Below, piece by piece: positions 25,601-31,600 of a DNA stretch of 64,000 bases. This DNA is from Mya arenaria. Taxonomy: Eukaryota > Mollusca > Bivalvia > Myida > Myidae. The notes below the pieces were generated by a model, which ran no database searches, was not told the origin of the DNA, and worked only from the letters and a program-made list of their open reading frames with translations. The position numbers were made by a program, and so were the translations under genes. How positions within the stretch are numbered: position 1 is the first letter of the stretch; each line of letters begins with the position of its first letter. The stretch lies in contig NC_069131.1 of NCBI RefSeq assembly GCF_026914265.1, positions 10,866,001-10,930,000 on the forward strand, written 5' to 3'.

Positions 25601-28600
25601 ATCATCCTACAACTCCTAAGTTTCTCCCCTGACCTCCACATTTCCCTATAACCGGTGGTTACTATGTCCTTACCTTAGACAATCGGAACACCCTCCTGGT
25701 GAACTCTGCATACACCTCCTCAATTTCCCCTTTGACCTCGACGTCCCCGTATACCTCCGTGGTTCCCGTGTCTGGCCAGTACTGTTCGCACTGCATCGAA
25801 AACGACTGAAGCAAGCGAGGTTTAACATGGTGAAGTTTGTTGTGCTTTGGTAGAAGACGCACGAGCAGATAATTGCTTAAGCGACGTCATTTTCATTGTA
25901 TAAGACTTGTTATTAACAAATGCTTGTTGACTTATTTGAAAACAAAACCTTTTTTCACATTTCTAACGACTAACCGAAACTTACTAGGAACATGTGTTAT
26001 AGTACTTGGCTTGTCCCTGTAGTTAACACTGCATTTATACTATGGATCACATACACGTTCCTATACAGACGTGTTTGTTGCCATTGTGTTCAAGCATGAC
26101 GCCTCCTGACAGTCTTTGACAATAAAGATATGATTTTTTGTTAGAAGGAATATCCCATTAGTTTAATTTCAAATGTTTCAAGAAAAAGTTACACTCAGTC
26201 ATACAAATGGCTCTTTATTGTATATTACAAAAGCTTTATTTTAATAACTTAACAACGTATATGCATTTTTTGCTCACCCCAAGCTCAATTATGTTTGCCA
26301 ACATGACGATTTTCTCAACGTTATTTTGCCAGACCATGCTCCAGAAGATGCCATAGTCTCCAAGCTGTGCACTGGTAGGACCTGAAACACGATATACACA
26401 GTCTGACATCCACGCACCATTGAAGTAAACAATAAGAGGCGAATACATGGATCACAAAACTCACTCATTTCAAAGACCAAGGGCCATGATTACTTTCACG
26501 ACTGCTAGATGAATCACAGTTACTATTGTTTCAGAGGAACCATTTAACTTACCAAGTGTAGCGATATATTCGTTTTGCCTTTTGAATCCCTAAAATAAAG
26601 AAAACAATATCATAACTATTAGAAGTTAAACTACATACTTGTTGTTGTTGTTTCTTTTAAATATAAATGAAAAAGTTGATTTGATATTAATCGTGAAGAC
26701 GAAACTATTTAAGAACAAATAGCCAACGTCTAATTACGTGGATAAGGCTCGCATTGATGGAGTCGGGGTATTAGCTTGTTTAGAAACAAATTGTAAACTT
26801 CCATTTACGATAAAAAGGAGTCGGGGTAATAGCTTGTTTAGAAACAAATTGTAAACTTCCACTTACGATAAAAAGGAGTCGGGGTAATAGCTTGTTTAGA
26901 AACAAATTGTAAACTTCCATTTACGATAAAAAGGAGTCGGGGTAATAGCTTGTTAGGAACAAATTGTAAACTTCCATTTACGATAAAAAGGAGTCGGGGT
27001 AATAGCTTGTTTAGAAACAAATTGTAAACTTCCACTTACGATAAAAAGGAGTCGGGGTAATAGATTGTTTAGAAACAAATTGTAAACTTTCACTTACGAG
27101 AAATGGAGTCGGTGTAAAAGCTTGTTTAGAAACAAATTGTAAACTTCCACTTACGAGATATGTAGTCGGGGTATTAGCTTGTTTAGAAACAAATTGTAAA
27201 CTTCCACTTACGATAAAAAGGAGTCGGTGTAAAAGCTTGTTTAGAAACAAATTGTAAACTTCCACTTACGAGAAATGTAGTCGGGGTATTAGCTTGTTTA
27301 GAAACAAATTGTACACTTCCACTTACGAGAAATGGAGTCGGGGTAATAGCTTGTTTAGAAACAAATTGTAAACTTCCACTTACGAGAAATGGAGTCGGGG
27401 TAATAGCTTGTTTAGAAACAAATTGTAAACTTCCACTTACGAGAAATGGAGTCGGGGTAATAGCTTGTTTAGAAACAAATTGTAAACTTCCATTTACGAG
27501 AAATGGAGTCGGGGTAATAGCTTGTTAGGAACAAATTGTAAACTTCCATTTACGAGAAATGGAGTCGGGGTAATAGCTTGTTTAGAAACAAATTGTAAAC
27601 TTCCATTTACGATAAAAAGGAGTCGGGGTAATAGCTTGTTTAGAAACAAATTGTAAATTTCCATTTACGATAAAAAGGAGTCGGGGTAATAGCTTGTTTA
27701 GAAACAAATTGTAAACTTCCATTTACGAGAAATGGAGTCGGGGTAATAGCTTGTTTAGAAACAAATTGTAAACTTCCACTTACGATAAAAAGGAGTCGGT
27801 GTAAAAGCTTGTTTAGGAACAAATTGTAAACTTCCACTTACGAGAAATGGAGTCGGGGAAGTAGCTTGTTTATAAACAAATTGTACACTTCCACTTACGA
27901 GAAATGGAGTCCTGGTAATAGCTTGTTTAGAAACAAATTGTAAACTTCCACTTACGAGAAATGGAGTCGGGGTAATAGCTTGTTAGAAACAAATTGTAAA
28001 CTTCCACTTACGAGAAATGGAGTCGGGGTAATAGCTTGTTTAGGAACAAATTGTACACTTCTACTTACGAGAAATGGAGTCGGGGAAGTAGCTTGTTTAT
28101 AAACAAATTGTACAGTTCCATTTACGAGAAATGGAGTCGGGGTAATAGCTTGTTAGGAACAAATTGTAAACTTCCACTTACGAGAAATGGAGTCGGGGAA
28201 GTAGCTTGTTTATAAACATTGTACACTTCCACTAACGAGAAATGGAGTCAGGGTAATAGCTTGTTTAGAAACAAATTGTAAACTTCCACTTACGAGAAAT
28301 GGAGTCGGTGTAATAGCTTGTTTAGAAACAAATTGTAAACTTCCACTTACGAGAAATGGAGTCGGTGTAATAGCTTGTTTAGAAACAAATTGTAAACTTC
28401 CACTTACGAGAAATGGAGTCGGTGTAATAGCTTGTTTAGAAACTTCCACTTACGAGAAATGGAGTCGGTGTAATAGCTTGTTTTGAAACTTGCACTTACG
28501 AGAAATGAAGTCGGTGTAATAGCTTGTTTAGAAACTTGCACTTACGAGAAATGGAGTCGGTGTAATAGCTTGTTTAGAAACTTCCACTTACGAGAAATGG

Positions 28601-31600
28601 AGTCGGTGTAATAGCTTGTTTAGAAACTTGCACTTACGAGAAATGGAGTCGGTGTAATAGCTTGTTTAGAAACTTCCACTTACGAGAAATGGAGTCGGTG
28701 TAATAGCTTGTTTAGAAACTTGCACTTACGAGAAATGGAGTCGGTGTAATAGCTTGTTTAGAAACTTCCACTTACGAGAAATGGAGTCGGTGTAATAGCT
28801 TGTTTAGAAACTTCCACTTACGAGAAATGGAGTCGGTGTAATAGCTTGTTTAGAAACTTCCACTTACGAGAAATGGAGTCGGTGTAATAGCTTGTTTAGA
28901 AACTTCCACTTACGAGAAATCGAATCGGTGTAATAGCTTGTTTAGAAACTTCCACTTACGAGAAATGAAGTCGGGAAAGTAGATGTTTAGAAACAAATTG
29001 TAAACTTCCACTTACGAAAAAAGTAGTCGGAGTAGTAGCTTTTTTGGAAACAAATGGTAAAACTCTACTTACGTGAATGAAACTAGCATTTATGTAGTCG
29101 GGGAAGTAGCCTTCCACTTTCACTCTGCTGTCATCATCTGTTGGATATTAATACCAAATAGTTGAATGGTTTACAATTAAATATAGTTTCTTCGTCTTTA
29201 AATAGGTAAGATCAATTCCGTTAGTCTCCTTGCGGAATGTAACGGAATGGATCCACCATGGGTATTCGGCGATTTGACAAATGTAATATGAATTGTTTAT
29301 GTGTTTGGCTAAGATGACACTTGCCCATAAGTGTTCTTATGTTTATAGTGGGTATCTAAAACAACAAAGCACTGTCTCGTCCGAAAGTGCGAAAGAAATC
29401 TACATTTTACTGCACCATCTAGCACAAAAGTATTAGAAAAGGACATGTCGACCTTAACTTCAATCATTATTATATTTATTCGAAATAGTACGAGTACCAT
29501 TGATATATTTATATTTAATGACAAACTAATAATAAAAGTGAACTGGTGAACATCTTACATGGGTAGATTCCCCTGTATCTATTTCTGTTGACATTGGCCA
29601 CTAGTTGTGAGGCGCTGTATGGCTTTAGTAGACCCGTGGGGATTTTCTGTAACAGTATTAAAAGCAGTCGTACATTGTTAGGATCAGAAAGTTATTTGAC
29701 GTCACATGGTTACATCGCCTTGCTCTACCCTTATTGTTATAAATTACAACCACACCAAGCGAAATAAACTTACCTTAATGAAATGCTGTACATTAATGGA
29801 ACAAAATATATGTATCAATCTAATTATTACCTCTAATAAATTTATGCACAGTATCTACGATTCTTTAATCATGTGCCCCTGGGGTTTTTTTTATAACAAA
29901 ACATTCACAAAGGACAGATAGTTTGATAAAGTCACGTGATTAACGTGAACTATTTGATGCTGTGCTAAAATATTTTTTTCATTCTGTGTTTATAACGATG
30001 AGCTGTATTTGCTTAAGTTAAATAAACATTCTGTTCTGTTCTATTCTATATTCAAATAAATCCAGTACATCTGAAATAGTCGTCTCAATTTTTGTTAGAA
30101 ATACTGCAGATAACAAGAAGTGTATGCATTAAATCTCCAGAGCAGTAAAGATTAGGAACACTGACGTCAACAACTTTGTTAACTTTAGCATAAGTATTTT
30201 ACAATCAACCCAAAGATATATATACATATATATACCATTGACAAACATCCTTAAGCAGAATTGAGATAAATCTTCTTTCATCTGCGTACCAAATTCTAAT
30301 GATCAATTAACTGATCCGCTGATTACATAAAATATTCAGTCATATTTTTTATCGACAGAAACAATCCAGTTGTTTTATAACCGTCCGCCCAAGTTTTCCC
30401 ATAGACTGCCTCACCTTGCGGTCGTCGACCTCACCACAGTCAAAATGGTTAAAGTTTTACCTGTAAGTCACAACTTAAAAGGTCTACTTAGCTACGCTAA
30501 GCGTGTGTCTGTTTCGGCCAAACACATCATCGAATCAGAAACAGCCAAAATGCAGTATTTGTATTTGACTTGTAATTAGTGTTTGCCATACATTTTCAGC
30601 CAATCAGGGGCGCTAGATTATTAAAATGTTCTGAATTGTGAAGAATCGTTACTTATTGGTTAAGACGACTCATTTTGATGTTAATTGCTTTAACTGCGCA
30701 TGCGCATATAGCCATCCATACTGTTAGCATATCGATGGCCCCACTTCAAAATGCCGAAGCTGCATTTTTTTTGTTTCTAAATGTTTACATCATTTAAATC
30801 ATACAGGCGAGCCGCATATAACTGCAAAATGCCGAGTAAATAGTCCAATGAGAAAATGGTGTTGCATCATGTGATCAAAATGTCGAGCAATGATTGGACA
30901 TCTCGCAGAGAAGAAAAAAAATGCCGAACCTTAGGAAATTGTAACTTCAAATATTGTAACTTCGGCATTTTGTTAAAAAAGTGTGATCAAATTACCAGAC
31001 TTAAATACTAAAGAAATTTCTACTGAAAACATAGGATTATGTAGCTTCGACATTTGGAATTGATGCCATAAATATGCAATAGCACGAGTTCAGTGTCAAC
31101 GCAGATTTAAATGACGTCACAATATCCTTGGGGGTATTCATGCAGTGATTAATAGCACGCGGCATGATTTAAAAGCTGATGCAATTTAGGAGGGGCTATT
31201 ATACTTAGTCGGTTAAAGTTTATTGAGTAATTTCTTCGGAAATAAGATTGCACGGTCGCATCACCAAGATAACTGTTTCAGGATGTTACTTATGAAAATC
31301 TAACCTTAACGAAGAAAGTTATTTTGGTTAAGACCTACCTTAAAGTCATCCTTATAGTTGTCCATATTTTTGGAGGCAACATGTCCCGGTAGAGCTTGCA
31401 CCGTTATCTTGTTATCTCTGCACTCGGACCTTGGGCTGGGGCTTGGGCGGGGTCTTGCCACTGGTTTGTCTCTCACTTTCAGAGTGGACTGGTTTTCGTA
31501 GATACCGTCACTTTCTTCCTCTTCCAAATTTCGGATATATAAAATAAGTTGCATTATCTAGAATGTTGTGATGCTTTTACTGATTGAAATAAACCTACAA

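What the first reader, a model, noticed from the sequence alone, without database searches (positions are those of the whole stretch)
26755..29137. Minisatellite grown from a PTP exon's 3' end, multiplying a real 5' splice site about 40 times
The array begins immediately after exon 9 of the phosphatase, and its unit contains the same blocks in the same order as the exon's last 45 bases plus donor (TTCCCCGACT, TTTC.., GTAAGT). Some units keep the exon's GTCGGGGAAGTAGC string exactly. Each unit thus presents a GTAAG donor-like site, and TTTGTTTCTAAACAAG, an acceptor-like stretch, within the transcribed strand. The gene must pick one true donor among some 40 decoys, or the array could spawn micro-exons or shift splicing with copy number. 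Seeding of a minisatellite by an exon-intron junction is unusual.
Basis: partly seen in the sequence, partly recalled or inferred. Interest (0 to 1): 0.8.

Follow-up and report, generated by a model that had tools for sequence, protein, structure and literature searches.

The report
Intron minisatellite copied from exon's end
Inside a clam-like phosphatase gene, the end of one exon together with its splice signal has been copied in tandem more than forty times, filling the next intron with lookalike splice sites; such arrays were described before in amphioxus, and this one is a natural test of how cells pick the right splice site.

Summary
On the minus strand, intron 9 of a receptor tyrosine phosphatase gene (2,483 nt) is mostly a minisatellite beginning at the donor of exon 9. 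The 57-bp unit aligns along its whole length with the last 38 nt of exon 9 plus about 32 nt of intron, minus 14 exonic bases (score 45; best of 5,110 other window comparisons 29; 0 of 3,000 shuffles). The array is bracketed by two junction copies; beyond it 148 nt remain, a normal intron length here. Two searches of the same genome found it nowhere else.

Of 43 decoy donors, 32 keep GTAAGT. Donor hexamers change at about the rate of the rest of the unit (0.037 against 0.040), so no selection on them is visible. The proposed acceptor-like stretch scores far below real acceptors. Any decoy but the first would break the reading frame.

Seeding by an exon/intron boundary is not new: amphioxus "mirages" are the same kind, reported not to disturb splicing. 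This is a new, long member in a clam-like genome. Whether any decoy is used needs RNA.

The parts
29559..29646 (-). Exon '8' of the receptor PTP gene (...[10 protein letters not shown]), phase 1 into exon 9
   Evidence: AG/GT-bounded, joins in frame with exon 9
29073..29137 (-).
   Evidence: Open frame and splice sites; same exon end found in 24 of 29 paralog loci
29067..29072 (-). True 5' splice site GTAAGT of exon 9, first of 44 donor-like sites
   Evidence: Position shared with 24 paralogs; U1 duplex -7.3 kcal/mol
29041..29110 (-). Proto-unit: about 70 bp spanning the junction (38 nt exon + 32 nt intron), proximal full-length copy (E1)
   Evidence: Alignment to units and to E2
28960..29072 (-). 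Two exon-proximal, diverged units (57 and 56 nt)
   Evidence: 81% and 91% identical to the unit consensus
28408..28959 (-). Twelve 46-nt units: 11-bp deletion derivative, secondarily amplified
26809..28407 (-). Twenty-eight 55-58-nt units: 19 begin with GTAAGT, eight with GTAAAT, one with GTTAGT
26738..26808 (-). Last, 71-nt interval of the array (begins GTAAAT); its 3' part lacks the 14-bp deletion
26714..26775 (-). E2: second full-length copy of the exon/intron junction ([18 protein letters not shown]), 47 of 62 bases identical to E1 without gaps
   Evidence: Score 49; shuffles max 28, window max 28 of 6,134 comparisons; 15 differences in 62
26590..26737 (-). Remaining intron: 148 nt from the E2 donor to exon 10, within the range of paralog introns
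   Evidence: paralog introns 111-687 nt
26553..26589 (-). Exon '10' ([12 protein letters not shown]), 37 nt
   Evidence: AG/GT-bounded and in frame

Best explanation
A roughly 70-bp segment spanning the 3' end of exon 9 and the start of intron 9 of this PTP gene was duplicated in tandem (inferred from the two full-length copies). One copy lost 14 exonic bases, and that shortened 57-bp unit was amplified between the two full-length copies to about 42 units; later an 11-bp deletion produced a 46-bp unit that was amplified to twelve. The original exon keeps its coding role and its donor is the 5'-most of 44. The decoys are probably spliced out with the intron, because no AG inside the array scores as well as the real acceptors, while exon 9 has its own acceptor 65 nt before the true donor (exon-definition argument, inferred). 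Decoy donors drift neutrally. Shown: homology, bracketing, single locus found, decoys changing at the background rate. Inferred: order of events and the splicing outcome.
For: Unit against E1 score 45, null max 29 of 5,110 window comparisons; E1 against E2 score 49, null maxima 28. Twenty-six paralog junctions score at most 18 against the unit, so this gene's own junction is the source. Array found at one place in a 1.216-Gb genome with two queries. Paralog introns at this position are 111-687 nt in the 24 measured (25); TRF finds only two-copy repeats in three of those 25 at score 50, and no longer minisatellite. Here 148 nt remain after the E2 donor. End units are more diverged than internal ones (81%, 91%, 91% against a mean of 96%) and neighbours are more alike than distant units (lag 1 94.6%, lag 30 91.9%), as expected of unequal exchange. 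Donor hexamer change 9/246 against 83/2,091 elsewhere in the 41 internal units. AGs at AAACAAG|C score poorly as acceptors. The assembled D1 matches Y_phosphatase at 1.6e-63 and carries [10 protein letters not shown], so D1 looks intact.
Against: No RNA data, so correct splicing is inferred. No sister species or second individual was available. The donor-strength estimate is a simple duplex energy, and the acceptor matrix rests on 16 sequences; one array AG (27912) scores 4.7, between the rest and the real acceptor at 8.5. Some paralog junctions also score up to 35 against E2 (L027, L030), above the null of 28, because E2 is coding-like; 49 for this gene's own exon is still the best. The genome search warns that it skips very common words, so 'one place' is a tool-limited result. 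Local folding gives the true donor a higher chance of being unpaired than the median decoy (0.028 against 0.006, decoys up to 0.066), which could also explain decoy avoidance; it has no shuffle control.
Confidence: 0.85

Rival explanations
1. The minisatellite arose independently in the intron and resembles the exon end by chance or through a shared GTAAGT motif.
For: Other arrays lie close to phosphatase exons without exon homology: the 44-bp array in the D2 intron scores 21 (window null max 26 and 28), and a 27-bp array after exon 11 in three close paralogs scores 16, 16 and 21 (shuffle max 30, 25, 25).
Against: The resemblance spans the whole unit and is far above both nulls; a second full-length coding-like copy, including the H codon that is D in all 24 paralogs read, ends the array.
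Confidence: 0.03
2. The array is a splicing regulator: its donors bind U1 and change exon 9 splicing, copy number tuning the amount or form of phosphatase. The first decoy (29015) would insert 19 residues in frame.
For: 32 of 43 decoys keep GTAAGT, with U1 pairing within 0.5 kcal/mol of the true donor for 31 of the 32; the extension to 29015 is open and in frame.
Against: Donor hexamers are no better kept than the rest of the unit; the decoy at 28959 shifts the frame and all 41 later decoys put a stop codon in the extended exon; no array AG reaches the real acceptor's score; RT-PCR for amphioxus mirages suggested regular splicing (PMC3087553 passages).
Confidence: 0.08
3. The decoys are mildly harmful: some transcripts use them and are destroyed by nonsense-mediated decay, so longer arrays lower the expression of this gene.
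For: 41 of 43 decoys would introduce an in-frame stop and one more a frameshift.
Against: No sign that decoy donors are lost faster than neighbouring bases.
Confidence: 0.12
4. The array length or the E2 copy is an assembly or haplotype-merging artefact.
For: Tandem arrays are assembly-prone; no raw reads were available here.
Against: 30 distinct units among 43, with ordered subtypes and diverged ends, are not what a simple collapse or stutter gives.
Confidence: 0.04

Closest known systems
Amphioxus 'mirages' (minisatellite-like tandem repeats of exon/intron boundaries): Adh3, globins BflGb6 and BflGb9, troponin C; similar repeats in PGBD5
   Same: Tandem units span a real exon/intron boundary and carry splice signals; cluster ends are excluded from homogenisation; BflGb9 contains a duplicate of a 3' exon boundary (PMC3087553, passages read; PMC3902484, one passage).
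   Different: Clam-like genome rather than amphioxus; 43 intervals against 6 and 3 repeats in the two BflGb6 haplotypes; 57/46-bp unit against about 150-160 bp in the globins (Adh3 10-72 bp). Here the amplified unit is a 14-bp deletion derivative lying between two full-length copies. Splicing and length differences were examined there, not here.
Human internal tandem repeats that modify exon/intron structure in segmental duplications
   Same: Minisatellite expansion, some at exon-intron boundaries, in recently duplicated genes, with possible new introns (PMC2812944, passages read).
   Different: On average 30-bp units repeated 4 times, scored by changed gene structure; here no changed structure is shown.
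[quoted passage not shown]
   Same: Starts with duplication across a splice site.
   Different: Here an existing intron was enlarged; no new intron is seen.
LHX3 intron 5 repeat contraction in dogs (PMC3223203, title and start of abstract in the search listing only)
   Same: An intronic tandem repeat whose length is associated with aberrant splicing.
   Different: 7-bp repeat; no exon seeding is mentioned in what I saw.

Membership tests
'Mirage' exon/intron-boundary minisatellites | Tandem minisatellite-like repeats inside a gene | tested here: met
'Mirage' exon/intron-boundary minisatellites | The repeat unit spans an exon/intron boundary of the adjacent exon | tested here: met
'Mirage' exon/intron-boundary minisatellites | Repeats carry splice signals of the boundary (many, not all) | tested here: met
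   32 of 43 decoys GTAAGT
'Mirage' exon/intron-boundary minisatellites | Concerted evolution inside, diverged cluster ends | tested here: met
'Mirage' exon/intron-boundary minisatellites | Normal splicing is not disturbed | not testable with these tools
   No RNA held; only indirect evidence
'Mirage' exon/intron-boundary minisatellites | Length instability between alleles or in somatic cells | not testable with these tools
   One assembly only
Exon duplication / alternative exon | Duplicated copy has usable acceptor and donor and an open frame | tested here: not met
   E2 donor is GTAATT with U1 pairing -1.7 kcal/mol; a TAA precedes [11 protein letters not shown] in the exon's frame (sequence); no array AG reaches the real acceptor's score
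Receptor protein tyrosine phosphatase gene | Y_phosphatase domain with the HCxxGxxR signature (signature recalled) | tested here: met
   PF00102 E 1.6e-63 on the assembled D1; [10 protein letters not shown] present

The most novel reading that the evidence does not exclude
The array is a copy-number-variable platform of strong U1-binding donor copies that acts on its own gene, by competing with the exon 9 donor, by supplying an in-frame 19-residue insertion from the first decoy, or by aiding transcription through the intron. Phosphatase output would then depend on array length.
Probability: 0.07. Interest if true: 0.75.

Novelty: new member of a known kind. Interest (0 to 1): 0.45.

Why it matters
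It is a ready-made natural experiment on 5' splice-site choice: one true donor followed by 43 tandem derivatives of itself, 32 with the same GTAAGT, and no sign of selection against them. It also shows the birth of a minisatellite with both founding copies still readable. In the listings of the nine answered paper searches (several lists were capped) and the passages I read, tandem arrays of an exon/intron boundary came up in amphioxus, and human tandem repeats at such boundaries in one paper; I saw none for a mollusc. The library holds open-licence papers only, so this does not show that none exists.

Tried and rejected
Micro-exons from the array: rejected, because AGs at AAACAAG|C score about -12 to -14 against 8.5 for the real acceptor. 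The best other array AG (27912) scores 4.7 and its upstream stretch is not pyrimidine-rich.

The D2 array as a second exon-seeded case: it lies in the homologous intron of the second phosphatase domain, and I expected homology to the D2 junction; the score of 21 is inside the null. A 27-bp array just after exon 11 in three paralogs also failed. So 0 of 4 control arrays tested is exon-seeded, but the three paralog arrays have nearly the same unit and are one case rather than three. The 48-bp array was not compared with an exon.

Exon-end duplicates in paralog introns: none reached the best of 200 shuffles in the 25 of 26 junctions with a found acceptor. TRF of those 25 introns shows two-copy repeats in L018, L020 and L021 at score 50, and at score 30 also a run of period 3 and one of period 9 in L018 and a 20-bp repeat in L036.

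RNA structure hiding the decoys: a weak trend only, no shuffle control, not used as an argument.

U1 protection against early polyadenylation: no AATAAA or ATTAAA in the intron, so no direct support.

Rows left out and limits of counts: of 29 paralog loci (L010-L038), five showed no exon 9 in the roughly 3.1 kb held; one search recovered the exon for two of them (L047, L051), and three (L011, L019, L026) stay unresolved. The exon was found by a motif, so diverged exons would be missed; the later counts also required D or H before the donor. Several paralog loci are near-identical pairs (such as L020/L021 and L027/L030), so the 24 are not independent. The donor energy of exon 8 printed used a wrong coordinate and is not used. 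The E2 shuffles used a stretch 8 bases shorter than the one aligned.

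Full report
What is there. The window lies at G000:C10:10866001-10930000 of a 1.216-Gb genome in 18 contigs. This fits the published soft-shell clam (Mya arenaria) assembly, 1.22 Gb and 17 chromosomes (PMC10663159, one passage), but the species was not tested. On the minus strand runs a receptor-type tyrosine phosphatase gene. A spliced first phosphatase domain put together from window exons matches Y_phosphatase (PF00102) at 1.6e-63 and contains [10 protein letters not shown] (the start of exon 13 was corrected by eye between the two). 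A search with exon 9-11 residues scored 150 places in this genome, 140 of them on the same chromosome by my count of the listing (the tool calls such counts lower bounds), so the family is hugely expanded.

Exon 9 and its donor. Exon 9 is minus 29137-29073, 65 nt, ending [15 protein letters not shown]. In 24 of 29 paralog loci held, a motif search finds the same exon with the same boundary; all 24 end in D where this gene has H. Introns there measure 111-687 nt. In this gene the intron is 2,483 nt.

The array. Between the true donor at 29072 and a last donor at 26737 there are 43 donor-to-donor intervals. The common unit is GTAAGTGGAAGTTTACAATTTGTTTCTAAAC AAGCTATTACCCCGACTCCATTTCTC. The junction itself reads GCTACTTCCCCGACTACATAAATGCTAGTTTCATTCAC|GTAAGTAGAGTTTTACCATTTGTTTCC. 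The two align over the whole unit with one 14-bp gap, score 45. Shuffled junctions reach at most 35 in 3,000, and 5,110 other window comparisons at most 29. None of 26 paralog junctions exceeds 18 against the unit. The source is therefore this gene's own exon end, not just any phosphatase exon.

The second founding copy. The array ends with CCCCGACTCCATCAATGCGAGCCTTATCCAC|GTAATTAGACGTTGG, which reads [10 protein letters not shown] and a decayed donor. It aligns with the exon 9 junction for 62 bases without a gap (47 identical), score 49, null maxima 28. Paralog junctions reach up to 35 against it, as expected of coding-like sequence. It lacks the 14-bp deletion that the internal units share, and it carries the H codon seen only in this gene among those read. 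From its donor to exon 10 there are 148 nt, a normal intron for this position. The simplest history is a tandem duplication of about 70 bp across the junction, a 14-bp deletion in one copy, amplification of the deleted copy between the two originals, and later an 11-bp deletion with its own amplification (twelve 46-bp units towards the exon side). The joints show only very short shared sequence (AAG/TAG), consistent with slippage or microhomology, but this was not tested.

Turnover. There are 30 distinct units among 43; neighbours are more alike than distant units (94.6% at lag 1, 91.9% at lag 30); the first two and the last units are more diverged than the average. That is ordinary minisatellite turnover by unequal exchange. 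E1 and E2 differ at 15 of 62 sites (Jukes-Cantor 0.29), so the founding duplication looks older than the interior.

Splicing signals. Of 44 donor-like sites 33 are GTAAGT including the true one, 9 GTAAAT, 1 GTTAGT, 1 GTAATT. Of eight paralog donor strings computed the same way, six lie between -0.7 and -3.3 and two reach -6.8 and -7.0. The decoys are therefore real competitors by sequence. Yet hexamer positions change about as much as others, 9/246 against 83/2,091 in the 41 internal units, so neither upkeep nor purging is visible. The AGs of the proposed acceptor-like stretch score far below real acceptors, and the best array AG scores 4.7 against 8.5. If decoys were used, the first would add 19 residues in frame, the second would shift the frame, and all 41 later ones would carry an in-frame stop.

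Elsewhere. The array's unit and the junction, searched in the whole genome, return only this place, within the stated limits of that search. Of 25 paralog introns at this position, three hold a two-copy repeat at TRF score 50 and none a longer minisatellite. Four other arrays near phosphatase exons, three of them nearly the same array in close paralogs, show no exon homology. Exon seeding is thus particular to this array among those tested.

What is known. Amphioxus 'mirages' are minisatellite-like tandem duplications of exon/intron boundaries, reported in Adh3, globins and troponin C, with similar repeats in PGBD5; RT-PCR suggested no interference with splicing, and length instability was reported (passages of PMC3087553 and PMC3902484). 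The Adh3 paper itself was not held. This locus meets the sequence features of that kind. Copy number, taxon and the bracketed structure differ; normal splicing and instability could not be tested. I file it as a new member of a known kind.

Noticed in passing
18699-21463: A 44-bp minisatellite (about 50 copies) lies in the homologous intron of the second phosphatase domain (donor at 21718, AMYID|GTAATA). Its decayed units reach to within roughly 60-120 nt of that donor, but it shows no significant exon homology. Two unrelated arrays at equivalent positions of D1 and D2 is curious.
   Followed up: partly
37840-43022: A 48-bp minisatellite of about 108 copies lies 5' of the cysteine-rich ectodomain exon, with long open frames on both strands (1,101 aa on the minus strand, PIPYTVISPIATLGVH-like repeats), since 48 is a multiple of three.
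   Followed up: no
50385-60150: A block of about 3,245 bp seems repeated head to tail (TRF markers at 50385, 53630, 56875, 60120), with the same 143-aa open frame listed three times (52913, 56158, 59403).
   Followed up: no
2733-4304 and 10880-12451: Two tandem copies of a gene for a protein that looks like a carboxylesterase (from memory, no search). One copy is open over 523 aa; in the other the frame is interrupted by a stop codon.
   Followed up: no
G000 contig C10: 140 of 150 scored phosphatase matches in the genome fall on one chromosome, a very large local expansion of phosphatase genes.
   Followed up: partly
L012, L017, L023: Three close paralogs carry a 27-bp array just after exon 11, without exon homology; the copy number differs between them (4.9, 4.9 and 11.5 by TRF).
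   Followed up: partly
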